A program made the translations under genes and the position numbers. The notes below the pieces were generated by a model. It was not told the origin of the DNA. It worked only from the letters and a program-made list of their open reading frames with translations, and did not search any database. DNA of 16,285 nucleotides from Bordetella parapertussis (GTDB lineage: Bacteria > Pseudomonadota > Gammaproteobacteria > Burkholderiales > Burkholderiaceae_B), in the NCBI GenBank assembly GCA_943331855.1, contig CALQNE010000046.1:1-16285 (forward strand). The letters run 5' to 3'. Of this stretch, positions 1 to 14,936 are shown one piece after another (position 1 is the stretch's first letter; the number at the start of each line of letters is the position of its first letter).

Positions 1-283
1 CCCCATAGGCATCGCGCACCACCGAGAAGTCCATGGCAGTAATCGTGTTGAGGGCGGTCTCACGTGGAAATAGCTTTAGGCAAGCTTCTTTAGCCGCGAA
101 GCGCGCAGCAAGACTCGCAAGGCGAGCGGCACCCTCACCCGCGTCAAGCAGTTCTTGCACTGAAAAAAGCTTTTCGAGATCGCCTGGCAGTGCCTCAACC
201 AGTCGGGCAATGCGCGCAATTTCAACTGTATCAACCGCGCAGCCGTCGGGCAAAGTATCTTCGCGAACAGACGACGCCGTCAC
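1..283 (-). CDS. Holo-[acyl-carrier-protein] synthase / 4'-phosphopantetheinyl transferase, partial (C-terminus outside the window)
   Basis: This gene would transfer the 4'-phosphopantetheine arm of CoA to the serine of an acyl carrier protein. Ninety-four residues are visible before the left edge cuts the gene. The first AcpS signature, AVDTVEIARI, lies at residues 16-25, with D18 as the expected metal ligand. The second, ARFAAKEACLK, lies at 60-70, with E66 as the second ligand. The spacing fits the AcpS family, which is usually about 120-130 residues. I placed the start at a GTG 1 base after the stop of the upstream KAS-like gene. No Shine-Dalgarno sequence is evident there, so translation probably depends on coupling. 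Its place at the end of the synthase operon suggests that it activates the operon's own acyl carrier protein at 3750-4178; that is inference. The family call is fairly firm. Whether this is the only or a second AcpS of the genome cannot be seen. Confidence 0.83.
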   Translation of the reverse strand, partial: MTASSVREDTLPDGCAVDTVEIARIARLVEALPGDLEKLFSVQELLDAGEGAARLASLAARFAAKEACLKLFPRETALNTITAMDFSVVRDAYG

Positions 284-284
284 G

Positions 285-1556
285 CTATTGAATCGCGCGT
301 AACAACAATGCGCCGTTTGTGCCCGCAAAACCGCGACATAACACCAACACCACATCGCTGCGCGGTGCACGGGTTTGCTGAGAGACATTTAGACCCGCAC
401 ACGAATCCGCCAACTGTTCAAGATTTGCAATCCCGGGGACCACTTTGCGCCGACAAGCTTCAAGACCTACGGCCACGTCTACCAACCCCGAGGCGGCAAA
501 TAAGTGGCCGAACGACCATTTAAACCCGGTGACCGGTGGCATATCAGTACCAAAGACGCTTAGCAAGGCTGCGGTTTCTGATGCATCAGATTCTTGTGTC
601 CCGTTGCCGTGCGCCACAATCATGCCCACGTCGGCTGGTTTGAGTTGCGCATCGGCCAAGGCCAAGTCAATCGCACGCCTTAAGCCATCACCATCAGCGC
701 GAATACAAAACAAACCCTCGCCCTCAGAAGCATCACCGCCGCCTAGATACTCTCCGAGCACGGTCGCGCCTCGCGCCTGCGCAGATGCCTCAGTTTCAAG
801 TACCAACGCAGCAGCACCCTCACCTAGCAAACATCCGTCATGTCGCCGATCAAAGGGTCGTAAGGTCTCTTTGCTAATTAACCCGACGCGCTCAAGGTAC
901 AACAACGTTTGTGGCTCGATGGGCGCATCATGCCCGACCGCTACAACACGCTGGGCATCGCCCTCTCGAAGCGCCCAGGCGCTTTCAATCACCGACAAAA
1001 TACCGCTAGAAGTATGGTTGGTGATGCACCCGTTTGGGCCCTTGAGCTGATGACGAATACTAATATGGCACAACACGTTATTCGGCAACGATTTCAGCAG
1101 CCACATCGGATTGACCATGTTCGACAGCTCGCGACCGAAACCATTGAGATCGTTTTTAGTTTCGGCCATCAAGGGAAAAAAGTCGTAATTCACTTCAAAC
1201 GCGCCCCCGCCCGAGCCCACATAACAACCGGTTTGATCGGCGTACTGCGCCGCAGTCGTTTCATCGAGGGCCTCGCGCCAAGCGGGCAGACCCGCTTGCT
1301 CGATGGCTTGACCACCTGCGTAAATACCAAAGACGTCAGAACGACGTACAAGCTTGAGCAGTTTACGGTCGCCGAGTAACTTACCACCGTTGTAATCAGG
1401 CACTTCAGCCGCGAGGTGGCCCTGATAATGCTCAGCATTAAAACTTGTGATCGGAACCAGGTTCGAGCGCCCTGCTAATAAGGTGTCAACAATGCTACCG
1501 GGATCGGTCCCTGATCCGCAGATAGCACCATTTCCTGTAATGACGATTCGACTCAT
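285..1556 (-). CDS. Beta-ketoacyl synthase-like protein lacking the catalytic cysteine (chain-length-factor or decarboxylase-like)
   Basis: This is a 423-residue thiolase-fold condensing-enzyme homologue of normal FabF length. The N-terminal strand RIVITGNGAICGSG is typical of KAS II proteins. The motif around the nucleophile reads GPNGCITNHTSSG (173-185). Aligned without gaps to the usual GPxxxxxTACxSG, it puts Thr182 (codon ACT) where the catalytic Cys should be. The other active-site residues remain: H316 in AHGNGT, K346, and H351 in FGH. The C-terminal GFAGTN loop is also present. Cys-less KAS proteins serve as chain-length factors paired with an active KAS, or as malonyl-ACP decarboxylases. 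The neighbouring gene 5 bases upstream encodes an intact KAS, so a heterodimer is plausible. The start is the ATG at 1556, with AGGA about 11 bases upstream; a longer reading frame up to 1619 overlaps the upstream gene and has no family similarity there. Confidence 0.88.
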   Translation of the reverse strand: MSRIVITGNGAICGSGTDPGSIVDTLLAGRSNLVPITSFNAEHYQGHLAAEVPDYNGGKLLGDRKLLKLVRRSDVFGIYAGGQAIEQAGLPAWREALDETTAAQYADQTGCYVGSGGGAFEVNYDFFPLMAETKNDLNGFGRELSNMVNPMWLLKSLPNNVLCHISIRHQLKGPNGCITNHTSSGILSVIESAWALREGDAQRVVAVGHDAPIEPQTLLYLERVGLISKETLRPFDRRHDGCLLGEGAAALVLETEASAQARGATVLGEYLGGGDASEGEGLFCIRADGDGLRRAIDLALADAQLKPADVGMIVAHGNGTQESDASETAALLSVFGTDMPPVTGFKWSFGHLFAASGLVDVAVGLEACRRKVVPGIANLEQLADSCAGLNVSQQTRAPRSDVVLVLCRGFAGTNGALLLRAIQ

Positions 1557-1561
1557 GTTGA

Positions 1562-2875
1562 TCACCGTCCTGAAGCGACAAGTGCCGCTGTTTCTTCGGG
1601 ATGTCGAAAGGCCAGGCAACTGTTGCTACCCCCGAACCCGAGTGAGTTTGAAATTGCCATGCCAATGCGTTGTGCACGCGGTACGTCGCGAACAATATTG
1701 ACGTCGCAATCGGGATCGAGTTGTTGCAAGTTTGCGTTGGGCGGCATCAAACCATCGCGAATGGCCAACGCGCACAGCCCCGCTTCGACCGCGCCCGCCG
1801 CTGCGATGAGATGGCCCGTCACACTCTTCGTTGAACTGACGCCAACACTTTGGACACGCCCTGCAAAGACAGCGTTGACTGCGGCACATTCACTGCGATC
1901 ATTCATCGGCGTCGAGGTGCCGTGAGCATTCAAATAGTCAATATCGGCAATGTCAGCACCTGCATCAGCAATGGCCCGACGCATTGACTGAATCGGGCCA
2001 TCGCCCGAGGGATGAGAATCTGTGATGCGATAGGACGAGAGTGAATTGCCATCACCTGCCAACTCAGCGTAAATCGTAGCGCCACGCTGTACGGCAGAGT
2101 TCCATTCTTCGAGCACTAAAAATCCAGCGCCTTCGCCCAACAAAAACCCGTTGCGAGTTAGATCAAACGGTCGACTGGCACGTTCAGGTTGATCGTTATC
2201 AGGCGAGACCGCCGACAGCAAACAAAAGCCCGACAGCCCAACCGGCGAGATCATGGAGTCAAAGCCACCTGTCAGTACGCGGTCGGCTAAGCCGCGACGA
2301 ATCAAGCGCATGGCGGTGCCGATGGCCTGCCCCCCTGAGGCGCACGCGGTATGTACCGTCGACGCATAACCGCGGATACCAAAACGGCGCAACAACAAAG
2401 AAATGCCCGCAGTAGACAAGCTACGGCTAAACGCCATCACATCATTGGCGATCGGCTCATTGAGCAAGGCACTGGCAACAAATTCACCGTCGGGCGCTGC
2501 AGAGCTTTGCACGGCCGCGATCTCTTGATGTGCCACAGTCATCATGCCAGCACCCACGACACAACCCCAGCGGGCTGCATCTTGTGCGGTAGGGCGCACA
2601 CCCGCGTCAGCGATTGCCTGATCAGCTGCGCCTATGGCAAACCGATGCGCACGACTGGCGTACTTCAGCAACTTACGATCATCAATGGGCGGCAAGTCAT
2701 CAAAGCCCTTTACCTCAGCTGCGATGCGCGTTGAGAAGCCTGAGGCATCAAAAATCGTAATCGGACCCGCACAACTGCGCGCCGATTTAATTCGGGCCCA
2801 GGTTGAAGCTGTGTCAAGACCGGCCGGGGTTACCAGTCCGATTCCTGTGATCGCAACGCGACGTCGTGTGGTCAT
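1562..2875 (-). CDS. Beta-ketoacyl-[acyl-carrier-protein] synthase, KAS I/II family (FabF-like)
   Basis: This 437-residue enzyme should catalyse decarboxylative Claisen condensation of an acyl chain with malonyl-ACP, the chain-extending step. The complete catalytic set is visible: the nucleophile C178 in HTACASG, H318 in NAHGTSTPMND, K350 in SSTKS, and H355 in VTGH. The C-terminal GFGGSN loop (413-418) is canonical. The N-terminus RRVAITGIGLVTPAG is typical of FabF. Its ATG overlaps the stop of the dehydratase gene by 4 bases (ATGA), and its own stop lies 5 bases before the Cys-less KAS gene, so the three are probably translated in a coupled manner. The intact neighbour suggests that this is the active half of a KAS pair. 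It is clearly a KAS, but housekeeping fabF is usually found beside acpP, fabG and fabD, which differs from this context. Confidence 0.93.
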   Translation of the reverse strand: MTTRRRVAITGIGLVTPAGLDTASTWARIKSARSCAGPITIFDASGFSTRIAAEVKGFDDLPPIDDRKLLKYASRAHRFAIGAADQAIADAGVRPTAQDAARWGCVVGAGMMTVAHQEIAAVQSSAAPDGEFVASALLNEPIANDVMAFSRSLSTAGISLLLRRFGIRGYASTVHTACASGGQAIGTAMRLIRRGLADRVLTGGFDSMISPVGLSGFCLLSAVSPDNDQPERASRPFDLTRNGFLLGEGAGFLVLEEWNSAVQRGATIYAELAGDGNSLSSYRITDSHPSGDGPIQSMRRAIADAGADIADIDYLNAHGTSTPMNDRSECAAVNAVFAGRVQSVGVSSTKSVTGHLIAAAGAVEAGLCALAIRDGLMPPNANLQQLDPDCDVNIVRDVPRAQRIGMAISNSLGFGGSNSCLAFRHPEETAALVASGR

Positions 2876-3750
2876 GCAATTTCTCCGGGTGCAAAAAACA
2901 TCTTCGCACCAGCGATGGTTTTACCCTCAGCCTGCGCAGTCACCTTGACCAGGTAGGGCTCGAGATCTTCAGAACTCGGTGCAACCAGCTGAGCCGATAG
3001 CACCACCGTTGCGCCAGGCGCCGTAAATGCACGCACTTTGACATTAGTAATACGCGTCAACCGCTGCGTCACGTTGCCAGCGGCTAGGGCGACTGCACGC
3101 ATCGCTAACTGTAACTGAGCATCTAGCATCAAGGTTGCCGGAAAAACGGGACGCCGCGGAAAATGATCTTCAAAGAAAGCGGCCTGGGCCGGCACCGCCA
3201 ATTGCGCTTGAAAATGCTCGACCGTCGACTCAGGTAAGTCAGTCAGGGCGGGCCGTGGCACACCGGCAAAGGCCCCAGGGACACGTCCGGAAGTGCTAAG
3301 TTGAGCGAAATCAGCAGCCAATGCAGCCGGATCATCAAAATCGTGAATGTCGAGCATTGAACCGACTGTATCAGCCAACTCAAGCACCAATTGCCCCCTT
3401 ACAAGAGCATGACCGCGATACACAATTGACTCGGCGTCACACGACTCAATGTCCACAATCAATTCGAGCATGTCGCCTGGTCGAGGCATTGAAAAAATCT
3501 TGGTATCGCCCGCCAGTGCCGCGACCGGGCGATGGCTAAATCCCACGGTTGACATGGCGACCCAAGCTGCCAGTTGGCCTAAGGCCTCGGCTACCAAACT
3601 GGTCGGAAAGTGGTCAATACTTGCCGGGATCGTGTAGACGCCGCATACCCGCGTCACACCTTCAATTTGGGTAATTCGGTCGACAAAGGAAAAAGCAGCA
3701 AAGCGACCAGTTGGCGCGGCCGCAGTGGCCCGCGCCATACTCACGACCAT
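2872..3750 (-). CDS. Double-hotdog 3-hydroxyacyl-ACP dehydratase (FabA/FabZ-like tandem)
   Basis: This 292-residue protein appears to be a tandem of two hotdog folds and would dehydrate 3-hydroxyacyl-ACP to enoyl-ACP. The C-terminal half contains DHFPRRPVFPATLMLD (195-210). His196 and Asp210 are 14 residues apart, exactly as in FabA-type enzymes, where these residues are the catalytic pair. The N-terminal half contains IDHFPTSLVAEALGQLAAW (45-63). Aligned on EALGQ, this keeps the acidic residue (E55), but the position of the catalytic His is Ile41, so this half is probably structural. FabA and FabZ are normally single-domain proteins of about 150-170 residues that dimerise; the fusion makes the dimer internal. 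The start ATG overlaps the ACP stop by one base (TGATG). Whether it also isomerises the double bond like FabA cannot be told from the sequence. Confidence 0.85.
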   Translation of the reverse strand: MVVSMARATAAAPTGRFAAFSFVDRITQIEGVTRVCGVYTIPASIDHFPTSLVAEALGQLAAWVAMSTVGFSHRPVAALAGDTKIFSMPRPGDMLELIVDIESCDAESIVYRGHALVRGQLVLELADTVGSMLDIHDFDDPAALAADFAQLSTSGRVPGAFAGVPRPALTDLPESTVEHFQAQLAVPAQAAFFEDHFPRRPVFPATLMLDAQLQLAMRAVALAAGNVTQRLTRITNVKVRAFTAPGATVVLSAQLVAPSSEDLEPYLVKVTAQAEGKTIAGAKMFFAPGEIA

Positions 3751-4178
3751 CAGCCAGCGGCTTGTGAAGCGCGCTGAGCACGAATCACGAGCTTGCAGAA
3801 GGTTTCGGGCGTGTACAACCGCGCGATGTGATCTACACGCATCGGTAACTTAAAGCGCGACTCGTCAATTTCAGACAAGTATTCGCGTAACCGAGCCACG
3901 CCTTTATCGGTCAAAACACCGCCTTGTTCGAATTCGGTCACAGGCATCTCGCCACGCACATCTTCGATGATTTTGCCGCGCGGCACTTTAATTTTGAAGG
4001 CACGCTCAAGACGGAACACCATGTCGAGAAAATCGATGGATTCGGCATCAAGGCCCTCGATCAGAGAAACGTCGAGTTTGATGTCATCTACATCGCAGCC
4101 GAGAGCATCGGCCATCGTTTTTTGAACGGTGGGGAACACCACCATAATTTCTTCTTTCGAGATGACTGCTTCAGCCAT
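3750..4178 (-). CDS. Acyl carrier protein with C-terminal extension
   Basis: This would carry the growing acyl chain on phosphopantetheine for the surrounding enzymes. The carrier domain spans roughly residues 8-90. The attachment site is Ser47 in LDAESIDFLDM; the usual DSL is ESI here, as in several specialised carriers. Helix III follows as FRLERAFKIKVP. The protein has 142 residues, whereas standard ACPs have about 80. The last 55-60 residues (SEIDESRF...RASQAAG) form a basic, mostly alpha-helical-looking tail of unknown role. The run SIDFLDMVF resembles the AcpXL-type carriers that handle very-long-chain hydroxy fatty acids in rhizobia; this is from memory and was not searched. The start ATG at 4178 has a good ribosome site (GGAG 8 bases upstream) and follows a 102-base gap, so translation of this operon segment is well initiated here. 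Confidence 0.9.
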   Translation of the reverse strand: MAEAVISKEEIMVVFPTVQKTMADALGCDVDDIKLDVSLIEGLDAESIDFLDMVFRLERAFKIKVPRGKIIEDVRGEMPVTEFEQGGVLTDKGVARLREYLSEIDESRFKLPMRVDHIARLYTPETFCKLVIRAQRASQAAG

Positions 4179-4280
4179 AATTAACTCCGAGTATGAGGTA
4201 AGCGCGCATCATTTTAACCCAAGTGTAGGGAAATCCCGCCTAGGCCAGCCACCACCAACCACGGTTTTCAAGCAAAAAAC

Positions 4281-5039
4281 TCAGGCCATCTTAAACCCGC
4301 CGTCCACATAAAGAATCTGGCCCGTGACGTAAGTCGCCATATCTGACACTAAAAATGCGACTGCATTGGCCACTTCTTGAGCCTGACCATAGCGTTTGAG
4401 CAGGATTTTGGTCTTAACTTCGTCATCGGCCAAGTCACGCACCTGTTGCGACATCTCAGTTTCGATGACCCCTGGCGCCACCGCATTGACCAGAATTTTA
4501 CGGGGTGCAAGCTCAACGGCCAGCGCGCGCGTCAAGGCGTCGATCGCGCCTTTGCTTGCTGCGTAATTGGCCTGCCCGCGACCAGCCTTGTTGCCAGCCA
4601 CAGAAGAAAGGTTAACGATTCGGCCCGCACGCTGCGACATCATGAACGGAATCACCGGGCGCGTCACGTTAAAAACGCCACCAACATTCGTGTCAAGCAC
4701 CCCCGAGATTTCGTCATCCTCCATTGCCGCCATCAAGTTGTCGCGCACGATGCCAGCATTGTTAATAAGAATATCGATACGCTCACAACGATCGGCGACC
4801 GCATTGACGGCCTCGATACAAGCCGCAGAGTCACTCACATCAACCTGCAAAGCCGTCGCCTTGCCACCTGCCGCGGTCACACTCGCAACCACCTCTTGGG
4901 CTGCAGCAGCGTTGCCACGGTAGAAAAAATTGACGTCGACCCCCTGCGCTGCAAGCAACTCAACAATCGCACGCCCAATCCCGCGCGAACCTCCGGTCAC
5001 AATTGCGACCTTGCCTGTCAAACCAGATTCAAAGCTCAT
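4281..5039 (-). CDS. fabG: 3-oxoacyl-[acyl-carrier-protein] reductase (FabG-type SDR)
   Basis: This 252-residue short-chain dehydrogenase would reduce 3-oxoacyl-ACP to 3-hydroxyacyl-ACP with NADPH. The cofactor motif TGGSRGIG is at 15-22, NNAG at 93-96, and the catalytic tetrad is N118, S146, Y159 and K163, with the Y-x3-K spacing of ketoreductases (YAASK). The ending ILYVDGGFKMA is typical of FabG, and length agrees with the family. I chose the ATG at 5039 rather than an in-frame TTG at 5048: the ATG has AGG 9 bases upstream, while the TTG lies against that site and overlaps the preceding gene. It follows the enoyl reductase stop by 5 bases. A housekeeping fabG probably exists elsewhere, so this copy may be dedicated to the module. 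SDR substrate calls are never certain, but the context supports the ACP-linked role. Confidence 0.88.
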   Translation of the reverse strand: MSFESGLTGKVAIVTGGSRGIGRAIVELLAAQGVDVNFFYRGNAAAAQEVVASVTAAGGKATALQVDVSDSAACIEAVNAVADRCERIDILINNAGIVRDNLMAAMEDDEISGVLDTNVGGVFNVTRPVIPFMMSQRAGRIVNLSSVAGNKAGRGQANYAASKGAIDALTRALAVELAPRKILVNAVAPGVIETEMSQQVRDLADDEVKTKILLKRYGQAQEVANAVAFLVSDMATYVTGQILYVDGGFKMA

Positions 5040-5044
5040 TGTGT

Positions 5045-5800
5045 TCAACCTGAAATTGAAAAACCACCATCGACCACTAAGGTATGACCATTAATCCAGG
5101 CAGCCTCAGGCAAACAAAGTAAGTAAACCGCATCAGCGACGTTCGTCGGCAACAAGCTAGGACCAATTGGCGTGCGCGCGGCGAACTCTGACAACACCTG
5201 GTCACGGTTCGGGAAATGACTCAGTGCATCGGTATCGACCACACCAGCCGACACTGTGTTGACACGAATCCCTTTTGGACCAAGCTCTTGCGCCAGGGTG
5301 CGCACCAACGCCTCGAGCGCCGCTTTTGAGGCGCCTATAAAACCATAATGCGGCATGGCGCGCTGGGCGCCCAAACTTGACATCGCAACAATGCGACCCC
5401 CGTTCTTCATTAAGGGTAAGGCCTGCTGCGCCAATAAGTTGACTGCGAACGCGTTGGTTTCAAGACACCAGCGAAAGTGCTTCAGACTCATCTCCATCGC
5501 GGGCTTCAATACCCCCGAGGCGGCATTGCTGATCACAATATCCAACTGACCAAATTCTTTCGTAATGGTTTCAAACATCTCGAGCACGCTATCGGGTACG
5601 CCAACACTGGCCTGCACCGCAATCGCCCGACGCCCCATGCCACGCACTTCGGCACAGACCGCTTCGGCCTCATCAAAACTGTTGTAGTAGTTGGCGACAA
5701 TGTCGCAACCGGCCGAGGCCAGTTTTAACGCACAGGCACGACCGATGCCGCGCGCTGCGCCGGTCACCAGGGCAACTTTACCAAGCAGGGGTTGACTCAT
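5045..5800 (-). CDS. fabL: Enoyl-[acyl-carrier-protein] reductase, FabL type (SDR)
   Basis: This 251-residue SDR most likely reduces the enoyl-ACP double bond and so completes the elongation cycle. It has TGAARGIG at 13-20. The active-site spacing is Y152-x6-K159 (YGFIGASK), the pattern of enoyl reductases FabI and FabL, rather than the Y-x3-K of ketoreductases such as the next gene. Several stretches closely match Bacillus subtilis FabL as I remember it: SNAASGVLKPAMEM (91-104), SSLGAQR (141-147), ASKAALEALVR (157-167), VDTDALSHFPNRD (188-200) and the terminal VVDGGFS. FabL is an NADPH-dependent enoyl reductase. The start ATG at 5800 has GGAG 13 bases upstream, slightly distant. An in-frame TTG at 5851 would add 17 residues of no family likeness. 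This is the first gene of the synthase operon and is divergent from mmsA. Confidence 0.85.
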   Translation of the reverse strand: MSQPLLGKVALVTGAARGIGRACALKLASAGCDIVANYYNSFDEAEAVCAEVRGMGRRAIAVQASVGVPDSVLEMFETITKEFGQLDIVISNAASGVLKPAMEMSLKHFRWCLETNAFAVNLLAQQALPLMKNGGRIVAMSSLGAQRAMPHYGFIGASKAALEALVRTLAQELGPKGIRVNTVSAGVVDTDALSHFPNRDQVLSEFAARTPIGPSLLPTNVADAVYLLCLPEAAWINGHTLVVDGGFSISG

Positions 5801-6010
5801 AGTATTGGGAAGACTCCGATCATTCGAACATAAGCCAGCATAAAGGTGCAAAGTTTAACCAAGATCGCCTGAGGCAACCAATTAGCGAACCTGCCACCAT
5901 CCATCTTACAATGGCGCCAAGCTTGTCTTTTTTGCATTATCGGCAATTTGTGCCTCATTCAACCTCTGTTTCGTGCCCCCGCGGCCCCGATGCTTAAAAA
6001 AGGATCTTGT
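5801..6010. promoter_or_regulatory. Divergent intergenic region between the synthase operon and mmsA
   Basis: This 210-base gap separates two divergently transcribed operons, so it must hold the promoters of both, unless expression comes from outside. I found no convincing -35/-10 pair on either strand. The mmsA ribosome site (AAGGA at 5999-6003) and the fabL GGAG lie at the two ends. A small inverted repeat, GCCT-G-AGGC, occurs at 5867-5875. Nothing here looks coding. Confidence 0.4.
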
Positions 6011-7534
6011 ATGTCTACGCAGCCACCCATGCCCGCCATCCCCAGTGTCGTCTCGCATTGGATTCACAACCAAGCGATTGTCAATGCAGGCGCACGCTCG
6101 CAAGACGTCTTTAATCCCGCAACGGGTCAGGTCGCGCGCAAGGTCGAGCTCGCCAGCCTAGAGACCGTGCAGGCGGCTGTCGACAGCGCTAAAAAGGCGT
6201 TTCCCGGTTGGGCGGATACCCCACCGATTCGTCGTGCCCGCATCATGAATAATTTTTTAGCGTTACTCAATGAACGCAAAGATGAACTCGCTTCAATCAT
6301 CACGCAAGAACACGGCAAAGTATTTACAGATGCCCAAGGTGAGGTCATGCGCGGCATCGACATCGTTGAATTCGCCTGCGGAATGCCGCAATTGTTGAAA
6401 GGCGACTTTACCGACCAAGTCTCAACCGGTATCGACAACTGGACGCTGCGCCAACCGTTAGGTGTTGTGGCCGGAATCACACCCTTTAATTTCCCGTGCA
6501 TGGTCCCGTGCTGGATGTTTCCCGTTGCGATTGCCGCGGGCAACTGTTTTATTTTAAAACCCAGCGAACGCGATCCCTCTGCGTCCATTTACATGGCTCA
6601 ACTCTTTAAAGAAGCCGGTTTACCTGAGGGCGTCTTTAACGTTGTGCAAGGCGATAAAGTCGCTGTCGATGGGCTACTCGAACACCCCGACGTCAAAGCG
6701 ATCAGCTTTGTCGGCTCAACCCCTATCGCACAATATATCTATCAACGCGGTGCCGATTTAGGCAAGCGCGTGCAAGCCTTAGGCGGTGCTAAAAATCATA
6801 TGGTCGTGATGCCCGATGCAGATATCGACCAAGCTGTTGATGGCCTGATCGGTGCGGCCTACGGCTCAGCCGGAGAACGCTGCATGGCCATTTCAGTGGC
6901 TGTTCTGGTAGGCGATATTGCAGACAAAGTCGTACCTTTACTGGCTGCCCGTGCAAAAACACTCAAAATCAAAAATGGACTTGAGCTTGATGCTGAAATG
7001 GGTCCGATTGTCACCCGCCAAGCACTTGAGCGCATCGAAGGCTACATCGAAGTGGGCGTCAAAGAAGGTGCCAAACTGGTCGTGGATGGTCGCGGACTAA
7101 AAGTACCCGGTCACGAGCAAGGCTTCTTTACGGGCGGTAGCTTGTTCGATCACGTGACGCCTGAAATGCGTATCTATAAAGAAGAAATCTTCGGACCCGT
7201 CTTGTCTTGCGTGCGCGTCAAAGACTTTGGTCAAGCGGTTGATCTCATTAATGCTCACGAATTTGGCAACGGCGTTTCTTGTTACACACGCGACGGTAAC
7301 GTGGCACGCGAATTTAGCCGTCGCATCCAGGTCGGCATGGTCGGAATCAATGTACCAATTCCTGTGCCAATGGCTTGGCATGGCTTTGGTGGCTGGAAGA
7401 AAAGTCTGTTTGGTGACATGCATGCCTACGGAGAAGAAGGTGTGCGCTTTTACACCAAACAAAAATCAATCATGCAGCGCTGGCCCGAGACCATCGGTAA
7501 AGGCGCTGAGTTCGTGATGCCCACAGCGAAGTAA
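6011..7534 (+). CDS. mmsA: CoA-acylating methylmalonate-semialdehyde dehydrogenase
   Basis: This 507-residue aldehyde dehydrogenase would oxidise methylmalonate semialdehyde (or malonate semialdehyde) with NAD+ and CoA to propionyl-CoA (or acetyl-CoA) and CO2, in valine, myo-inositol or beta-alanine catabolism in the cytoplasm. The catalytic Cys291 lies in [13 protein letters not shown], and the oxyanion Asn160 in ITPFNFP. The general-base Glu of ordinary aldehyde dehydrogenases is absent: the segment reads [10 protein letters not shown] (254-263) with Ala256 in its place. This absence marks the acylating MmsA/IolA branch. EEIFGP (391-396) and the closing [10 protein letters not shown] (460-469) are also typical, as is the length. 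I chose the ATG at 6011, with AGGA 7 bases upstream; a longer frame from 5948 adds residues without family similarity. queC follows after 7 bases and is probably co-transcribed. No other valine or inositol gene is in the window. Confidence 0.94.
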
Positions 7535-7541
7535 TGCACCA

Positions 7542-8234
7542 ATGTCTAAAAAAGCAGTGTGCTTGTTAAGTGGTGGTTTAGATTCAACCACGGTCGTAGC
7601 GATGGCTCAGAACGAAGGCTTTGAAGTCTACGCACTGAGTTTTCGCTATGGCCAGCGACATTCAATTGAGCTTGAGCGGGCAAGTGCCTTTGCCAAGCAG
7701 CGTGGTGTTGCCAGCCACGCTATTTTGGATATTGATCTGCGCAGCTTTGGTGGCTCGGCATTGACGGCCGATATCGCGGTGCCGAAAGGTCATTCGGTTG
7801 AAGATATCAGCGCCGGGATCCCAATCACGTATGTTCCGGCACGCAACACGATATTTTTAAGTTTTGCGCTCGGTTGGGCTGAGGTCTTGGGTGCCCAAGA
7901 TATTTTTGTCGGTGTCAATGCAATGGATTACAGCGGCTACCCCGATTGCCGCCCTGAATTCATTGCCGCGTTTGAGCACTTGGGCAATCTGGCCACTAAA
8001 GCCGGCGTTGAAGGCCAGCAACGACTCAACATTCGTGCGCCACTCATCAACATGACCAAAGCCGACATTATTCGAAAAGGTTTAGAACTTGGCGTCGATT
8101 TTTCAGAAACAACCAGCTGTTATGACCCGGCCCCCAACGGAGCGCCCTGCAAGCATTGTGACTCGTGCTTATTACGTGCCAAAGGGTTTGCTGAGGTCGG
8201 GCTCAGTGACCCGCTAGACGCTAAATTCGCGTAG
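7542..8234 (+). CDS. queC: 7-cyano-7-deazaguanine synthase
   Basis: QueC converts 7-carboxy-7-deazaguanine to preQ0 using ATP and ammonia, a step towards queuosine in tRNA. The 230-residue protein starts with the PP-loop ATP-binding motif [10 protein letters not shown] (8-17), followed by [10 protein letters not shown] (31-40). The central [18 protein letters not shown] (124-141) is a hallmark of the family. Four zinc-binding cysteines are present near the C-terminus: C193, C203, C206 and C209. The length is normal. The gene starts 7 bases after mmsA with only a weak ribosome site, consistent with coupling to it. There is no obvious functional link with mmsA, and queD/queE/queF are not in the window. 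It ends 24 bases before the convergent dctM gene with no visible terminator. Confidence 0.97.
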
Positions 8235-8258
8235 TCGCGGGCCCCAAAAAGCGCGTCA

Positions 8259-9527
8259 CTATTGAAGCGCTAGCGCGAAGCCTGGCACGTAGGTCACTAG
8301 CATCAACACAATTAGCATGACACCCACAAACGGCAGCATCACGCGTGATACGTCGGTGAGCTTCAAACCGCTAATCGCCATCCCCACAAAAAGACAATAG
8401 CCGATCGGCGGGGCCGCCATACCGATCGCAACATTGGTCACAATAATCGCACCGAAGTGAATGGGGCTGATCGCAAAACTGTTTGCAATCGCAATGAGTA
8501 GCGGCCCAAACACAACCATGATCGCGATTTCATCCATCACCGCGGCCACCAGAAAAAACACCAAATTCAATACCAACAGCATGATCCATTTTTCTTGGAT
8601 GTTTGCGGCGAGCCAAGTTGCGGCCTTGGGCGCAAGTTGTTCTTGGGCAACCAAAATACCGAAGCCGGCCGAGAACACAATAATCGACATGACAATGGCC
8701 GTCACTTTAGTGGAACGCCAGACAATGTCAGGCAGTTCGCGCCATTTCAAACGCTTTTCAACAACCGTCCCGATGAACAGGGCATACACACAGCTCACGA
8801 CCGCCGCTTCAGTCGGTGTAAAAACGCCGCCGTAAATGCCACCTAAAACAATGGCGGGTGCAAGCAGAGCCCAAATGCCATCGCGCAGAGCCGCGCGTAT
8901 TTCTGCCATCGACGCGCGTGGCTGTGTGGGGATCTTGTGTTTTTTGGCATGCCACCAGCAAACTACCATCAACCCCGCGGCCATCAACAAGCCAGGCAAA
9001 ATACCGGCACTAAACAACCGCGAAATTGACTGTTCTGCAATCACGCCCCAGATCACGAACGCAATTGAGGGCGGTATCAGGGGCGCCAAAATACCCGCAC
9101 TGACAGCCACAGCGGTCGCAAAAGGTTTGCTATAACCGCGCTCGGCCATGGCCGGGATCATGATGGCACCAATCGCCGCGGTAGTCGCCGGAGCCGAGCC
9201 AGAAATTGCTGCGAAAATCGCTGCGGCTAACACTGTGACTAACCCTAAGCCACCCGTCAGATGTCGCACAAAGACATCGGCGACTTTAATCAAACGTTGC
9301 GATAACCCGCCGGCCGACATCAGCTCGCCCGCCAACATAAAGAATGGGATGGCCAGCAGAGAAAAAGACTGCGTGCCAGCCACAACGGTTTGCGGCAACA
9401 GCATCGGCTCGATGCCAGACACCACTAACGAAAGCGCGACGACAATACCAATCGCGAAGGCAAAAGGCACGCCCAACAACATCAAAACGCCAAATCCTGC
9501 CGACAACAACCAAGCGGTGCTACTCAT
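8259..9527 (-). CDS. dctM: TRAP transporter large permease subunit (DctM family)
   Basis: This is the large membrane subunit that performs sodium-coupled transport of a substrate delivered by the periplasmic DctP protein. It has 422 residues and about 11-12 hydrophobic segments across its length. Typical DctM motifs are visible: FFMLAGELMSAGGLSQRLI (62-80), SGSAPATTAAIG (109-120), APLIPPSIAFVIWG (148-161) and GGVFTPTEAA near the middle. The start ATG lies inside the end of dctQ, overlapping by 8 bases, with GGAG 7 bases upstream; the two permease subunits are thus tightly coupled. Length is normal for non-fused DctM. The substrate cannot be read from this subunit. The gene converges with queC. 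Confidence 0.95.
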   Translation of the reverse strand: MSSTAWLLSAGFGVLMLLGVPFAFAIGIVVALSLVVSGIEPMLLPQTVVAGTQSFSLLAIPFFMLAGELMSAGGLSQRLIKVADVFVRHLTGGLGLVTVLAAAIFAAISGSAPATTAAIGAIMIPAMAERGYSKPFATAVAVSAGILAPLIPPSIAFVIWGVIAEQSISRLFSAGILPGLLMAAGLMVVCWWHAKKHKIPTQPRASMAEIRAALRDGIWALLAPAIVLGGIYGGVFTPTEAAVVSCVYALFIGTVVEKRLKWRELPDIVWRSTKVTAIVMSIIVFSAGFGILVAQEQLAPKAATWLAANIQEKWIMLLVLNLVFFLVAAVMDEIAIMVVFGPLLIAIANSFAISPIHFGAIIVTNVAIGMAAPPIGYCLFVGMAISGLKLTDVSRVMLPFVGVMLIVLMLVTYVPGFALALQ

Positions 9528-9996
9528 TTAAAGACTCCGCCCAAGGCAGTAAACGTTCAAAAGAAAACAATGCGATCAACACCCCAAAGGCGGGTGCTGC
9601 GGCATACAACAACTCAATCGGAAAACCAATTGCCGCCGACGTTGCGCCGCGCGTCTCAATCACGTAATTCCAGCCGGCGTACGCGATGAAGAGGCCTAAG
9701 GCACACATCATCAATGACACCAAAGCATCGACCATGCCGTGCAGCGACTTAGGCAGTAAGCCAACCAGCAAATCCATGCGCGCGTGCGTCAGACGCCGGA
9801 TACCGCTGACGGTAGAAATGACTACCACCCAGGCAAAACCAAGCAAAGAAAGCTCTTCGCTCCAGGACAAGGCCTTACCAAACACGTAACGCAAGAAGAC
9901 TTGTGCGCTGAGTGTTAACAGCATCAGCAGCACAATCGCAACTGCCAGCATCTTCAAAACACTTTCAAGTTTGTCAAACCAATGACGCATACTCAT
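9520..9996 (-). CDS. dctQ: TRAP transporter small permease subunit (DctQ family)
   Basis: DctQ is the small inner-membrane partner of DctM. The 158-residue product has four hydrophobic segments (about 14-34, 48-66, 87-108 and 127-147), as the family requires. The family-typical QVFLRYVFGKALSWSEEL (32-49), with its Arg and paired Glu, is clear. There are two candidate starts, the ATG codons at 9996 and 9990. A GGA lies only 2 bases from the first but 8 from the second, so the shorter 156-residue product may be the main one. The gene overlaps dctM by 8 bases and is separated from dctP by a terminator-like hairpin. Confidence 0.92.
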   Translation of the reverse strand: MSMRHWFDKLESVLKMLAVAIVLLMLLTLSAQVFLRYVFGKALSWSEELSLLGFAWVVVISTVSGIRRLTHARMDLLVGLLPKSLHGMVDALVSLMMCALGLFIAYAGWNYVIETRGATSAAIGFPIELLYAAAPAFGVLIALFSFERLLPWAESLNE

Positions 9997-10017
9997 TTTC
10001 CAATTTAATACGGCTAT

Positions 10018-10048
10018 AAAAAAAGGCGCTCGAAGGAGCGCCTTTTTT
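10018..10048 (-). terminator. Rho-independent terminator/attenuator between dctP and dctQ
   Basis: A perfect 7-bp stem (GGCGCTC / GAGCGCC, 10025-10031 with 10036-10042) encloses a GAAG tetraloop on the plus strand. It is flanked by 7 A on one side and 6 T on the other, so the minus-strand transcript ends in a run of U. It begins 8 bases after the dctP stop and lies before dctQ. No promoter is obvious in the short space to dctQ, so read-through probably feeds dctQM and the hairpin should lower their expression relative to dctP. Confidence 0.9.
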
Positions 10049-10055
10049 GACGGTT

Positions 10056-11054
10056 TTACTTCACTGCATCGAGTGCCTGATTGATCATCGCATCGCCCAC
10101 AGCTGCGCGCGACTTGTCGTAGATCGACTGAACAGACTTCCGGAAAGGTGCGACATCCGCGACTTTGTTAATGATCATTCCTTTTTGCGCCAAACCATCT
10201 AACAAAGCCTTCTCATTGACTAAAGCCGCAGCACGTTGCTCTGCTGTTGCAGTTTTACCCGCGTCGATCACTGCAGTCTTTTGTTCAGGCGTCAACTTAT
10301 CCATCGTGCGCTTTGAAATTAAGAGCGCGATCATTGAGTAGGTGTGATTGGTCATCGACAAAAACTTGGTGACTTCGTACATTTTTGAACTATCAATCAC
10401 GGCCACCGGGATTTCAAGACCATCAATCGTGCCTTGCTGAACGGCGGTAAACACTTCGCCCCAAGCCATCGGCACCGCAGCACCACCTAACGAGGTGAAC
10501 ATATCAATGTACATCGGGTTTTGCATGACGCGATATTTAACTCCAGTCACGTCTGCGGGGATACCAACTGGCTTCTTGTTGTTAATCATCTGGCGAAAGC
10601 CACCTTCCATGTAACCAAGCACCAGCATATTTTTCTTGGCCAACAATCCAGATAACTCGTTACCAAGTTTGCCGTCTAGTGCCTTGCGAGCTTGATCTTC
10701 ACTGGAGTACAAGAAAGGTAAATCATTCACTTGAAAAGCGGGCTCAATTTGAGCAATGACAGCATTGGTCATGATCGTCATGTCGACCGTACCAAACCGC
10801 ACCGCCTCCATCACTTGCTTCTCTTCGCCGAGTTGCCGATTTGGATACAACTGCACTTCGATCGAACCTTTTGAATTAGCCTCAACCGCTTTTTTGAACG
10901 CTTTAGCGCCTACGGTATAGGGATCGGTTGGACTATCAGCCGTGGTCCAGCCAAATTTCAAAATAGTTTTCTGAGCGAACGCTTGCGTGGGAGTTCCCAA
11001 CGCAAAAGTGGCGGCAACCAGGGCCGAAAGTGCGAATAAGTGACGACGTTTCAT
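10056..11054 (-). CDS. dctP: TRAP transporter substrate-binding protein (DctP family)
   Basis: This periplasmic protein binds the substrate and delivers it to DctQM. The 332-residue product starts with a clear signal peptide: MKRR, a hydrophobic stretch to about residue 22, and a likely cleavage after AFA (residue 27). The mature domain shows DctP hallmarks: YPNRQLGEEKQVMEAVRFGT (70-89), FRQM (153-156), KYRVMQNPMYIDMFTSLGG (173-191) and the conserved GEVFTAVQQGTIDG (199-212). R175 corresponds to the arginine that commonly pairs with a substrate carboxylate, so an organic acid is expected. The ribosome site GGAG lies 5 bases upstream of the ATG. The gene follows the amidohydrolase by 21 bases, so the hydrolase and the importer probably share a transcript. 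Confidence 0.95.
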   Translation of the reverse strand: MKRRHLFALSALVAATFALGTPTQAFAQKTILKFGWTTADSPTDPYTVGAKAFKKAVEANSKGSIEVQLYPNRQLGEEKQVMEAVRFGTVDMTIMTNAVIAQIEPAFQVNDLPFLYSSEDQARKALDGKLGNELSGLLAKKNMLVLGYMEGGFRQMINNKKPVGIPADVTGVKYRVMQNPMYIDMFTSLGGAAVPMAWGEVFTAVQQGTIDGLEIPVAVIDSSKMYEVTKFLSMTNHTYSMIALLISKRTMDKLTPEQKTAVIDAGKTATAEQRAAALVNEKALLDGLAQKGMIINKVADVAPFRKSVQSIYDKSRAAVGDAMINQALDAVK

Positions 11055-11075
11055 AAGGTCTCCAGGATGAAAGGA

Positions 11076-11954
11076 TTAGGCTTTTTGAACAAAGGGGGCA
11101 AAGTCATACAAGACTTCGGGGTTTTTGACGAGAATTTGTTGGCGCAAGCTAGCGTCAGGCAACCACTTAAATACCGCATCAGCGATGTCACCATCATTGG
11201 GCATTGGCGCCGGGATATTCGGATGAGGCCAGTCTGTTCCCCACACCAGGCGATCGGTTCGTGTGGCGAGCAAGGCATCTACAAACGGCTGAATCGCTGC
11301 CCACTTAACCGCAGGGTCAACCACGCGATACGCACCCGATAACTTCACCCACGCCACGCCTTCTTTGACGAGCGCACACATATTCTTAAATCCCGCATCG
11401 TCCACATCGGGCTTTGATGGATGGCCGAAATGATCAAAGACAACAGGCACACCCAATTTAGCGGCCCAGGCCGGGATCTCTGGCTGCGCCGCGACATCGA
11501 CTAAAAACTGAATATGCCAGCCAAAGGGTTTCAAGCGTTTCGCAAGACTTTCAGCGTCACTTAATTGACCACCGCCAGCAAACAAAATATTCAGACGCGT
11601 CCCGCGGGTACCCGCCTGGTGCAGTTTTTCAATTTCTTTGTCAGAGACATCCAGCGGCAAGACACCAACCGCACGCAAGCGATCAGGATGCGCACGCAGC
11701 GTGTCATAAAGCGTGGCATGATCGTGACCATAGACCGAAGGGTGAACGAGCACCGCACGGTCTGCGCCAATGGCATTATTCATCGCTTCAAACGCAGCCC
11801 AGGGAGCCAAGCTTGGCGTATACGAGCGATTTGCCGTGTAGGGATATTGGGCAGCATCTTCAAAAACATGAAAATGGCAATCCACGGTCCCCGCAGGCAA
11901 CTTTTGTTTAGGTGCAACCCTAGGATCAAAGGGTAAGTAGGTATCAGTCTGCAT
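11076..11954 (-). CDS. Amidohydrolase family protein, LigI-like (2-pyrone-4,6-dicarboxylate lactonase relatives)
   Basis: This 292-residue TIM-barrel hydrolase belongs to the amidohydrolase-2 group that contains LigI and sugar lactonases. The first metal/substrate motif is VDCHFHVF (24-31), with H27 and H29. VFDHFGHP (172-179) supplies H175 and H178, and VWGTDWPHP (237-245) supplies the catalytic-type D241. Length and motif order match LigI (about 290 residues), which opens the pyrone lactone in protocatechuate 4,5-cleavage. No signal peptide is present, so it acts in the cytoplasm. It is the first gene of the unit with dctPQM, which suggests that it acts on the imported compound or an early product of it. 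The substrate is not fixed by sequence; other lactones are equally possible. The start ATG at 11954 has a poor ribosome site. Confidence 0.83.
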   Translation of the reverse strand: MQTDTYLPFDPRVAPKQKLPAGTVDCHFHVFEDAAQYPYTANRSYTPSLAPWAAFEAMNNAIGADRAVLVHPSVYGHDHATLYDTLRAHPDRLRAVGVLPLDVSDKEIEKLHQAGTRGTRLNILFAGGGQLSDAESLAKRLKPFGWHIQFLVDVAAQPEIPAWAAKLGVPVVFDHFGHPSKPDVDDAGFKNMCALVKEGVAWVKLSGAYRVVDPAVKWAAIQPFVDALLATRTDRLVWGTDWPHPNIPAPMPNDGDIADAVFKWLPDASLRQQILVKNPEVLYDFAPFVQKA

Positions 11955-12122
11955 AACGCTTGTTTTGTCTGGGTGCGAGCAGGGCTATCGATGCGCCGAG
12001 CCCCATCTCTTGATTCGGGACGATATCACAGTGGTACCGTGTGTTGCTAGGTATTCGTCAGGTAGGCTCAGCCTAGGCACACTTGAACCCCTTGCATGCA
12101 CCCAACACACTAGAGAAAACCC
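11955..12122 (-). promoter_or_regulatory. Upstream region of the amidohydrolase-dctPQM unit with a 13-base palindrome
   Basis: This 168-base gap lies between ugpC and the amidohydrolase. It probably holds the promoter of the latter. A perfect inverted repeat, TAGGCT-C-AGCCTA, sits at 12063-12075, about 110 bases upstream of the start. It lacks a U-run, so an operator fits better than a terminator, but no regulator gene is nearby to support this. I found no convincing -35/-10 pair and no clear terminator after ugpC. Confidence 0.35.
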
Positions 12123-13127
12123 TTAGATGCGCAGGCCTGTAAGGGCATCGAACAGATGGATACGATCTGCGCGCGGTTTGGCATAGATCGTTTCTCCTAC
12201 TTTGGGTGCTTGTTGCTCTTCTTGAATACGCACGATCAGCGCTTCGTCTTGCAAGCGGCAATACAACAACCGCTCGGCACCCAAGAGTTCAATGCCTTCT
12301 ACTATTAACGGCCAGCCTTCATTGCCCACCTCAAGGTGTTCGGGCCTGATCCCCAGGATCGTATCAAGACCCGCCCCAGGTGCGTGCTTAAGCAAGTTCA
12401 TTGGCGGCGAGCCGATAAAGCTGGCAACAAACGTACTTGCGGGCGTGTTGTAAACCTCTGCTGGCGTACCGAACTGTTCCATCACGCCACCGTTCATGAC
12501 CAGCATGCGCTGCGCCAAGGTCATCGCCTCGACTTGATCGTGCGTGACAAACAAGGATGTGATGCCCAATTCTCGGTGCAACTTTTGAATTTCAAGTCGC
12601 GTCTGTGCTCGCAACTTTGCATCAAGGTTAGAGAGGGGTTCGTCAAACAAAAAAACTTGGGGCTGGCGCACGATTGCCCGACCCATCGCGACACGTTGAC
12701 GTTGCCCGCCCGACAGTGCACGAGGCTTACGCTCTAGGTACGGTCTAAGCTCAAGAATATCTGCCGCCTTTTCTACACGCGCTCTGATCTCATCCTTTGG
12801 CACGCGCGCGATTTTGAGGCCATACGCCATATTGTCAAAGACCGTCATGTGCGGATAGAGCGCATAGTTTTGAAACACCATCGCGATGTCGCGCTCAGCG
12901 GGCTCAAGATCATTGACCACACGCGTACCGATTGAGATTGTGCCGGACGTAATCTCTTCAAGCCCTGCCACCATGCGCAGCAGCGTTGACTTGCCACAGC
13001 CCGAAGGGCCAACGATCACGACAAACTCGCCGTCTGCGATCTCAGCCGAAACGTCATGAATTACCTGTACCGCAGCCTTGCCGGCGCCGTAGCGTTTCAC
13101 AATATGTTTTAACGAAATTGCAGCCAT
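12123..13127 (-). CDS. ugpC: sn-glycerol-3-phosphate ABC transporter ATP-binding protein
   Basis: UgpC is the ATPase of the Ugp importer and works as a dimer on the cytoplasmic face of UgpA-UgpE. All ABC motifs are present in the 334-residue protein: Walker [10 protein letters not shown] (40-48), Q-loop Q86 ([11 protein letters not shown]), signature [10 protein letters not shown] (138-147), Walker B VFLFDEP (158-164), D-loop SNLDA and H-loop H196. The C-terminal part, from about 235, is the MalK/UgpC-type regulatory domain ([16 protein letters not shown]), slightly shorter than in E. coli (about 356 residues in total). GGA lies 7 bases before the ATG. It is the last gene of the operon; ugpQ, which follows ugpC in E. 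coli, is absent here. Confidence 0.93.
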
Positions 13128-13151
13128 TTCAGTATCCGCTCGAGGTCATGC

Positions 13152-14006
13152 TCATTTTTCGGAATCTACCAAACCTTTCACAAACCACTTTTGCATCAAC
13201 ACGACCACCAGGGCCGGTGGCAACATCGCCAACATGGCTGTAGCCATCACGACGTTCCACTCAGTGTAGGCATCACCCGAAATCAACCGCCTGATCCCCA
13301 TCACCACTGGATACATACTCTCGTTGGTCGTTACCAATAATGGCCACAGATATTGATTCCAGCCATAAATAAATTGGATGACAAACAGCGCGGCAATACT
13401 GGTCCGAGACAGAGGCAGCAAGACGTCCCAAAAAAAACGCATAGGACTAGCGCCATCCATTCGCGCAGCCTCAACGAGTTCATCGGGCACAGTTAAAAAG
13501 AACTGTCTGAATAAAAATGTGGCTGTGGCCGAAGCAATCAAGGGGATGGTCAACCCCGCATACGAGTTCAACATCCCAAGATTAGATACAACTTCGTACG
13601 TCGGTCCGATCCGCACTTCAACCGGCAGCATCAGGGTGATAAAGATCATCCAAAACACTAGGCCCCGAAATGGAAATCTGAAATAGACAATGGCAAAGGC
13701 CGAGAGCATTGAAATTACGATTTTGCCAACGCTAATCAGCAGAGCTGTCACCAGACTCACCCACATCATTGGCCACGCCGGCGCGATGCGTCCACCCGAC
13801 TCAGTTTCGCCACCAAACAGGGCAAGGCGATACGTTTGAAGCATATTGTCGCCGGGCACCAAAGACATTGGGATTGCTTGGGTAATTTGTGCCGTCGTCT
13901 GGGTTGACGCCACAATAGTCACATAAACCGGAAACGCCACAATCAACACACCGAGTAGCAACACAAGATGTGACAGTATCGTCAGTACGGGGCGTCTTTC
14001 AATCAC
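13152..14006 (-). CDS. ugpE: sn-glycerol-3-phosphate ABC transporter permease
   Basis: This 284-residue inner-membrane subunit pairs with UgpA to form the translocation path. It has six hydrophobic segments and the ATPase-docking EAA loop [20 protein letters not shown] (176-195). Features of UgpE include [10 protein letters not shown] near the N-terminus, [15 protein letters not shown] (126-140) and [11 protein letters not shown]. The start is a GTG at 14006, the only reasonable start in this frame, and it encodes MIERRPV. An AGG lies 10 bases upstream. It follows ugpA after 15 bases. Confidence 0.94.
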
Positions 14007-14021
14007 GACGGGGCGACCTGA

Positions 14022-14906: not shown

Positions 14907-14936
14907 ACCCTAAAGAATCGCAAGACCGAGCGCAGT

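What the first reader, a model, noticed from the sequence alone, without database searches (positions are those of the whole stretch)
1..5800. Dedicated type II synthase module with a full elongation cycle and its own carrier-activating enzyme
Seven same-strand genes cover enoyl reductase, ketoreductase, ACP, dehydratase, active KAS, Cys-less KAS and AcpS. The order ACP-dehydratase-KAS-KAS recalls the rhizobial very-long-chain cluster (acpXL-fabZXL-fabF2XL-fabF1XL), but the reductases, the double-hotdog dehydratase and AcpS make it different. The lack of malonyl transferase, KAS III and acyltransferase suggests that it elongates primers made by the housekeeping system. The product could be a very-long-chain, polyunsaturated or polyene-like acyl group; this is open.
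Basis: partly seen in the sequence, partly recalled or inferred. Interest (0 to 1): 0.75.

Follow-up and report, generated by a model that had tools for sequence, protein, structure and literature searches.

The report
Dedicated fatty-acid synthase with fused acyltransferase
A bacterium related to lake and stream species carries a compact, rare gene set that seems to build a special fatty acid on its own carrier and then, probably through an unusual two-in-one enzyme, attach it to a lipid of the cell envelope; it resembles the rhizobial pathway for very long lipid A fatty acids but is a separate family.

Summary
In detail: seven same-strand genes encode a FabL-type enoyl reductase, ketoreductase, carrier protein, double-hotdog dehydratase, active ketosynthase, Cys-less ketosynthase and an AcpS-like protein. 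In relatives gene 7 is AcpS fused to a lipid-A-type (LpxL/HtrB, PF03279) acyltransferase: 61 of the 62 loci that hold the whole gene; L062 has only the transferase half. So the module does seem to have its own transferase. Gene order is the same in 56 of 80 loci; 23 of the other 24 are cut by contig ends and L076 is a real exception. Hosts are Alcaligenaceae, other Betaproteobacteria, Verrucomicrobia, NC10 and two Synechococcus, whose copies nest among betaproteobacterial ones. It is rare (5 of 398 other genomes sampled in the order). Another ketosynthase exists in 9 of 9 host genomes, so it is not the housekeeping synthase. It works most like the rhizobial acpXL-lpxXL locus, but fails the four curated cut-offs tested. 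Best reading: a nearly self-contained synthase making a saturated long or very long acyl chain and handing it to an envelope lipid, perhaps lipid A. Product and acceptor are untested. No description found in ten paper searches.

The parts
5045..5800 (-). Enoyl-ACP reductase, FabL type (likely start ATG 5800; ORF open to 5851)
   Evidence: NF005975 336.7 bits over cut-off 328; PDB 3OIC E 1.7e-63 with Y-x6-K aligned; Tyr and Lys in 72 of 72 aligned rows
4281..5048 (-). 3-ketoacyl-ACP reductase, FabG-type SDR (ATG 5039 also possible)
   Evidence: TIGR01830 264.7 bits, below its cut-off 297.75; NF009466 240.7 over 222; catalytic Tyr and Lys in 75 of 75 rows
3750..4178 (-). Dedicated acyl carrier protein, 142 aa with conserved C-terminal part
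   Evidence: PF00550; Ser in 76 of 76 rows; alignment A5 of 15 rows; model mean pLDDT 86
2872..3750 (-). 3-hydroxyacyl-ACP dehydratase, two fused hotdog domains
   Evidence: PF07977 on the C-half, PF22818 precomputed for most listed relatives; Glu55 of the N-half and His196 of the C-half each 76 of 76 rows; model mean pLDDT 88, double-hotdog matches
1562..2875 (-). Active beta-ketoacyl-ACP synthase (FabF type)
   Evidence: TIGR03150 417 bits, below cut-off 493.75; NF005589 400.7 over 387; Cys, His, Lys, His in 72 of 72 rows
285..1556 (-). Cys-less ketosynthase, chain-length-factor-like or decarboxylating subunit (ATG 1556; GTG 1565 possible)
   Evidence: PF00109 and PF02801; Cys position His 57 or Gln 12, two His and Lys in 69 of 69 rows; one clade of 40 rows, support 99
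2..283 (-). Gene 7, N-terminal AcpS part only; the gene runs out of the window on the left. In relatives fused to an LpxL-type acyltransferase
   Evidence: 94 aa 89% identical to fused proteins P0330 and P0335; PF01648 plus PF03279 in L001 and L074 and in the 120 homologues listed of 3067

Best explanation
The seven genes form one operon for making and delivering a special fatty acyl chain. The AcpS half of gene 7 puts the phosphopantetheine arm on the dedicated carrier protein. A ketosynthase pair (active subunit plus Cys-less partner) extends the chain. The FabG-type reductase, the double-hotdog dehydratase and the FabL-type reductase saturate it each round. The acyltransferase half of gene 7 then moves the chain from this carrier to an envelope glycolipid, most likely a lipid A or lipid-A-like acceptor. 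The product is probably a saturated long or very long chain. Shown here by sequence: enzyme kinds, catalytic residues, fusion (in relatives), linkage and co-inheritance. Inferred: the fusion in the window's own gene 7, operon transcription, activity, pairing of the two ketosynthases, chain length, saturation, acceptor.
For: Same seven-gene order and strand in 56 of 80 loci; 23 of the other 24 end at contig ends. Catalytic residues kept: active KAS 72 of 72, dehydratase 76 of 76, KR 75 of 75, ER 72 of 72, ACP Ser 76 of 76; AcpS Asp/Lys/Glu in 60 of 61 (one gap), LpxL His in 61 of 61, HX4E acid in 59 of 61. Fusion PF01648+PF03279 in two relatives scanned, in 61 of the 62 loci that hold the whole gene and in the 120 homologues listed. 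PDB relatives of gene 7 of L017 are AcpS for the N-half, and PatA and lipid A acyltransferase for the C-half. KAS and Cys-less KAS are each one clade, 100 and 99. Another KAS in 9 of 9 host genomes. LpxB in 18 of 18. The rhizobial locus of the same plan makes very-long-chain lipid A acids (passages of PMC11901934).
Against: No chemistry links the cluster to any lipid. Whole-cell fatty acids of three Zwartia species list nothing longer than C18 (passages of PMC10535154), though that method may not report very long or LPS-bound chains. L062 has the acyltransferase half without the AcpS half, and L076 has no ER, KR or ACP upstream. Both Synechococcus copies lack the acid of HX4E (T and A), so transfer may differ there. 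In Synechococcus CS-1331, the NC10 genome (G015) and G016 the fused gene is the only PF03279 hit, so no usual late lipid A acyltransferase was seen beside it; G015 and G016 are MAGs and may be incomplete. In 16 loci a condensation-type acyltransferase, hydrolase-like gene(s) and a methyltransferase sit upstream, which hints at an acceptor other than lipid A.
Confidence: 0.6

Rival explanations
1. Same module, but the acceptor is not lipid A: the acyltransferase half esterifies another envelope glycolipid or phospholipid, and in the extended clusters a condensation-type (PapA-like) acyltransferase, hydrolase-like lipoproteins and a methyltransferase finish a surface lipid.
For: PatA, a phosphatidylinositol-mannoside acyltransferase, is a better PDB sequence match (E 6.4e-8) than lipid A acyltransferase (1e-4). 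18 of 80 loci have upstream condensation, hydrolase-like or methyltransferase genes, 16 of them all three kinds. Two of 14 genomes tested because their loci lack it carry the condensation gene on another contig. Some hosts show no other PF03279 gene.
Against: The window's relatives (7 of 7 Alcaligenaceae-type genomes) and both Synechococcus lack the condensation gene. PF03279 and the best NCBIfam models are named for lipid A, though no NCBIfam cut-off for an acyltransferase is reached. LpxB is in 18 of 18 hosts.
Confidence: 0.35
2. The Cys-less ketosynthase is a malonyl-ACP decarboxylase (KSQ-like) that makes the acetyl primer, so the module runs from malonyl-ACP alone and does not elongate housekeeping acyl chains.
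For: Cys replaced by His or Gln while both His and the Lys stay in 69 of 69 rows. Cys to Gln defines KSQ domains (passages of PMC8792006); that KSQ decarboxylates is recalled. No KAS III among the seven genes.
Against: A Cys-less partner also exists in the rhizobial-type loci (Cys replaced by Glu, read by eye in 8 of 8; first His lost in the 3 read in full), where housekeeping primers are the recalled source. I know of no tested precedent for His at this position.
Confidence: 0.3
3. It is an aryl polyene or other pigment cluster.
For: Ketosynthase pair, separate reductase, hotdog dehydratases and an acyltransferase also occur in aryl polyene clusters.
Against: FabL-type reductase present; full-size Cys-less subunit against the half-size ApeC; no aryl-activating synthetase, thioesterase, RND or Lol-type exporter among the seven genes; the E. 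coli aryl polyene cluster has no PPTase.
Confidence: 0.05
4. It is simply the housekeeping fatty acid synthase.
For: All core elongation enzyme types are present.
Against: Another ketosynthase in 9 of 9 host genomes; patchy occurrence, 5 of 398 other genomes in the order. FabG, FabI and AcpP elsewhere were not searched. The window's own genome is not held.
Confidence: 0.02

Closest known systems
Rhizobial very-long-chain lipid A locus acpXL-fabZXL-fabF2XL-fabF1XL-adhXL-lpxXL
   Same: Own ACP, dehydratase, a pair of ketosynthases of which one lacks the Cys, and an LpxL-family acyltransferase, on one strand (passages; loci L087-L095)
   Different: Here ER and KR are in the operon, the dehydratase is a double hotdog, the KAS order is active then Cys-less (the reverse of L087-L094), the Cys becomes His or Gln rather than Glu, and AcpS is fused to the transferase. 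The four XL family cut-offs tested fail and the KAS trees separate
Aryl polyene (APE) clusters
   Same: KS plus Cys-less partner, KR, hotdog dehydratases, own ACP, an acyltransferase proposed for envelope attachment (passages)
   Different: Among the seven genes no aryl starter enzyme and no exporter; an ER; full-size Cys-less subunit; an AcpS fused to the transferase
Housekeeping type II FAS (FabF, FabG, FabZ, FabL/FabI, AcpP, AcpS)
   Same: Chemistry of each step (inferred)
   Different: Extra copy, separate KAS clade, long ACP, fused enzymes, rare
Type II PKS KS-CLF pairs
   Same: Active KS followed by a Cys-less homologue
   Different: The Cys-less subunit keeps both His and Lys (69 of 69); that classical CLFs do not is recalled. 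Full reduction set; LpxL-type transferase and no cyclase among the seven genes

Membership tests
Rhizobial acpXL-lpxXL locus | Carrier protein in AcpXL family (NF005079/PRK06508, cut-off 83 bits) | tested here: not met
   34.9 bits; a rhizobial-type ACP (L091) scores 185.2. That PRK06508 is AcpXL is recalled and fits its place in genome G1331 beside genes of PRK06519, PRK06501 and PRK06553
Rhizobial acpXL-lpxXL locus | Active KAS in NF005076/PRK06501 (cut-off 629) | tested here: not met
   304.9 bits; L095 protein 758.7
Rhizobial acpXL-lpxXL locus | Cys-less KAS in NF005084/PRK06519 (cut-off 320) | tested here: not met
   59.4 bits; L095 protein 618.5
Rhizobial acpXL-lpxXL locus | Acyltransferase in NF005120/PRK06553 (cut-off 273) | tested here: not met
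   103.6 and 85.1 bits for gene 7 of two relatives (L001, L058); L095 protein 467.4. The window's own acyltransferase half is not visible
Rhizobial acpXL-lpxXL locus | ACP, dehydratase, KAS pair with one Cys-less member and an LpxL-family transferase in one same-strand locus | tested here: met
   the KAS order is swapped and the transferase part is seen only in relatives
Rhizobial acpXL-lpxXL locus | Product is a very-long-chain acid on lipid A | not testable with these tools
   Needs lipid chemistry
Aryl polyene cluster | Half-size Cys-less ApeC partner | tested here: not met
   Cys-less subunit is 423 aa with both KAS Pfam halves; ApeC size from passages of PMC8358021
Aryl polyene cluster | Aryl-activating acyl-ACP synthetase and exporter genes | tested here: inconclusive
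   None among the seven genes nor in the rest of the window; genes left of the window are unknown and flanks of relatives were only partly annotated
AcpS (PF01648) | Catalytic Asp and Glu of the AcpS motifs (motifs recalled) | tested here: met
   Asp, Lys, Glu in 60 of 61 aligned copies, one gap; PDB AcpS matches. The window fragment alone scores 23.6, under the gathering score 25; two relatives score 26.5 and 34.3
LpxL/HtrB-type acyltransferase (PF03279) | Pfam gathering score and HX4(D/E) motif (motif recalled) | tested here: met
   115.5 and 139.7 bits over 22.3 in two relatives; His 61 of 61, acid 59 of 61; not visible in the window itself
FabL enoyl reductase | NF005975 cut-off 328 and Y-x6-K | tested here: met
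   336.7 bits; alignment to 3OIC
Housekeeping FAS II | Only KAS of the genome | tested here: not met
   Another KAS in 9 of 9 host genomes of relatives; the window's own genome is not held

The most novel reading that the evidence does not exclude
A self-sufficient, horizontally spread pathway for an undescribed class of envelope lipid, built around a bifunctional enzyme that both activates the dedicated carrier protein (AcpS half) and unloads it onto the lipid acceptor (LpxL half), with a His- or Gln-type Cys-less ketosynthase that primes by decarboxylation, shared by Betaproteobacteria, Verrucomicrobia, NC10 and some Synechococcus.
Probability: 0.3. Interest if true: 0.75.

Novelty: new variant of a known kind. 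Interest (0 to 1): 0.6.

Why it matters
Dedicated synthases that load special acids onto lipid A are, as far as I recall, known mainly from rhizobia and their kin. This looks like a second, independent assembly of that plan in other phyla, with the carrier-activating enzyme welded to the acyltransferase. It gives a concrete gene set whose removal in cultured species (such as Zwartia) would show directly what lipid these bacteria make. It also gives a natural test of how a Cys-less ketosynthase partner sets priming or chain length.

Tried and rejected
Polyene or polyunsaturated product: disfavoured for lack of aryl starter and exporter genes among the seven and presence of a FabL-type reductase. 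Housekeeping synthase: rejected. Direct membership in the rhizobial XL families: tested and not met.

Special lipid A genes in the Synechococcus hosts: both have a Kdo-transferase, LpxK, LpxB and ABC-exporter locus, which looked like a link. The control removed it: LpxK is in 5 of 6 other cyanobacterial genomes of 1.8-2.8 Mb, which were chosen by size from the listed genomes without the dehydratase.

Conserved neighbours: many families from the all-against-all ORF comparison were antisense frames of the core and were dropped. An aldehyde dehydrogenase and a queC-like gene recur in 29 and 28 loci, window included, all among L001-L034; I take them for shared background. Plasmid search with the dehydratase: only two weak partial Streptomyces matches. 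Promoter and terminator scan of 5700-6100 found none.

Rows dropped: a hit under 38% identity was not counted as a core gene, except for the dehydratase. For residue counts I left out hits covering 80% or less of the query, and also rows under 38% identity, which were other SDRs or the wrong ketosynthase (ER: L035, L062, L076; KR: L076; Cys-less KAS: L061). The first count still held those rows and read 72 of 75 for the ER Tyr. The tree used 39 of 80 loci picked by me plus the window, 3 of 8 rhizobial-type loci and 10 other KAS.

Literature: ten searches gave no title or abstract describing this cluster or an AcpS-LpxL fusion; only open-licence papers are held, and a 2023 type II PKS catalogue (passages of PMC10132072) reports KS-CLF pairs in Beta- and Cyanobacteria that may include it unnamed.
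Full report
What is in the window. On the - strand from 5800 to the left edge lie seven genes: FabL-type enoyl reductase (5045-5800), FabG-type ketoreductase (4281-5048), a 142-aa carrier protein (3750-4178), a 292-aa dehydratase (2872-3750), an active FabF-type ketosynthase (1562-2875), a Cys-less ketosynthase (285-1556) and the first 94 residues of an AcpS-like protein (283 to 2, cut by the edge). Family assignments are, start codons.

Gene 7 is a fusion in relatives. The dehydratase alignment A1 was scanned against genome contigs: 118 pattern matches, 99 confirmed, the best 80 kept. All 80 loci were compared with the window genes. Gene 7 is seen in 64 of them. In 61 the match covers over 80% of the fused L001 protein, so both halves; in L011 and L035 it is cut by the contig end; L062 has the acyltransferase half alone, with no AcpS half between it and the Cys-less KAS. 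The fusion is AcpS followed by a PF03279 lipid-A-type acyltransferase, shown by Pfam in L001 and L074 and by alignment of 11 diverse copies. A profile search with these fused proteins gave 3067 matches; the best 120 are listed and carry both Pfam domains (ranking favours fused proteins). The window's 94 residues are 89% identical to two of them. That the window's own gene goes on into the acyltransferase is therefore inference by homology.

Conservation and linkage. 56 of 80 loci have all seven genes in the same order and strand. In 23 of the other 24 the missing genes fall beyond the end of the held contig; L076 alone has sequence upstream but no ER, KR or ACP there. Catalytic residues, window included, misassigned rows left out: active KAS Cys-His-Lys-His 72 of 72; dehydratase Glu55 and His196 76 of 76; KR Tyr and Lys 75 of 75; ER Tyr and Lys 72 of 72; ACP Ser 76 of 76. 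Gene 7: AcpS Asp/Lys/Glu 60 of 61 with one gap; acyltransferase His 61 of 61, HX4E acid 59 of 61, the two others being the Synechococcus copies. The dehydratase is a double hotdog with the two acid-base residues in different halves, which I read as one split active site; no geometry was measured. The Cys-less enzyme has His (57) or Gln (12) at the Cys position among 69 rows, and keeps both His and the Lys in all 69.

Who has it. Record titles name Alcaligenaceae (three Zwartia species, Jezberella, many MAGs), other Betaproteobacteria, some Gammaproteobacteria MAGs, Verrucomicrobia, one NC10 MAG and two Synechococcus. In sampled genomes it is rare: 6 of 399 in the order of Zwartia hollandica with that genome itself included, 8 of 151 in its family, again including it and four genomes already known from my loci, 1 of 288 in Verrucomicrobiota, 1 of 292 in Cyanobacteria and 1 of 398 in Pseudomonadota, each the centre genome only. 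In a quick tree of 95 rows, cluster KAS (39 rows, support 100) and Cys-less KAS (40 rows, 99) are each one clade, apart from rhizobial-type and other KAS. Synechococcus rows sit beside betaproteobacterial L040 (KAS, 95) or L040 and L045 (Cys-less, 84). This fits horizontal transfer of the block. The tree is quick, without mixture model, and warns of long branches.

Not housekeeping. 9 of 9 host genomes tested have at least one other KAS. 8 of 9 have another AcpS/PPTase; in Synechococcus GFB01 only the fused one was found. Other FabG, FabI and AcpP were not searched. LpxB is in 18 of 18 hosts. PF03279: 18 of 18 have a match, but in Synechococcus CS-1331, the NC10 genome and G016 the single hit is the fused gene.

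Comparison with the rhizobial very-long-chain locus. Passages of PMC11901934 give acpXL-fabZXL-fabF2XL-fabF1XL-adhXL-lpxXL and its role in very-long-chain lipid A acids. I fetched rhizobial-type loci with NF005084 (34 of 398 genomes over cut-off; 8 loci taken). By BLAST with the window proteins, 8 of 8 show the ACP, a Cys-less KAS and an active KAS, and 5 of 8 a single-hotdog-size dehydratase; in L095 an LpxL-family gene follows. The Cys position reads Glu by eye in 8 of 8, and the first active-site His is gone in the 3 sequences read in full. Four proteins of that genome pass the XL family cut-offs; the window's ACP and both KAS, and gene 7 of relatives, fail them. Identity to the window is about 36-42% for the active KAS and 24-30% for the Cys-less one. 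So it works like that locus but is not a member.

Extended clusters. In 18 of 80 loci genes for a condensation-domain (PF00668) acyltransferase, alpha/beta-hydrolase-like proteins or an ICMT/PEMT-type methyltransferase lie upstream of the ER on the same strand; 16 have all three kinds, in one order in the proteobacterial and another in the verrucomicrobial records. The hydrolase call rests on a GHSxGG motif and a sub-threshold Pfam hit. The window's group lacks them: 0 of 7 Alcaligenaceae-type genomes (G001, G002, G003, G004, G007, G008, G018) had the condensation gene.

Mechanism. Best supported: the AcpS half activates the carrier; the KAS pair elongates; KR, DH and ER saturate; the LpxL half transfers the chain to an envelope glycolipid. 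Open: primer source (housekeeping acyl chains, or acetyl made by the Cys-less subunit), chain length, acceptor. FAME data for Zwartia (passages of PMC10535154) show nothing beyond C18, and unidentified lipids; this neither proves nor excludes the reading.

Verdict. New variant of a known kind. No description of it was found in ten paper searches.

Noticed in passing
window 5948-16285: Rest of the window looks ordinary: methylmalonate-semialdehyde dehydrogenase, queC, TRAP transporter genes (a 158-aa one without a strong match), an amidohydrolase-like gene (best model below cut-off), and ugpC, ugpE, ugpA, ugpB glycerol-3-phosphate ABC transporter genes.
   Followed up: partly
L081 3719-9026 and L084 6218-12147: Two Synechococcus hosts carry a Kdo-transferase, LpxK, LpxB, ABC-exporter locus; LpxK is also in 5 of 6 other small cyanobacterial genomes tested. 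In L084 LpxK and a piece of LpxB are partly duplicated.
   Followed up: partly
L083 6506-11040: An Akkermansiaceae genome has a second LpxB beside two LpxL-like genes and a cytochrome P450, on another contig than the cluster.
   Followed up: no
upstream of the enoyl reductase in L032, L033, L038, L040, L045, L048, L050, L056, L060, L063, L064, L068, L070, L071, L078, L079: Condensation-domain acyltransferase, hydrolase-like protein(s) and a methyltransferase linked to the module, in two different orders.
   Followed up: partly
L058 13459-14655 and L065 13430-14629: Both Synechococcus fused enzymes have T or A in place of the acid of the HX4E motif.
   Followed up: no
L062 4791-5681: Gene 7 has only the acyltransferase half; the AcpS half is absent.
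   Followed up: no
L076 7900-10000: The only locus with room upstream that lacks ER, KR and ACP; a scaffold error was not excluded.
   Followed up: no
G001:C23:499472-499825: Zwartia hollandica has another ketosynthase domain inside a 2530-aa open frame, perhaps a type I polyketide synthase.
   Followed up: no
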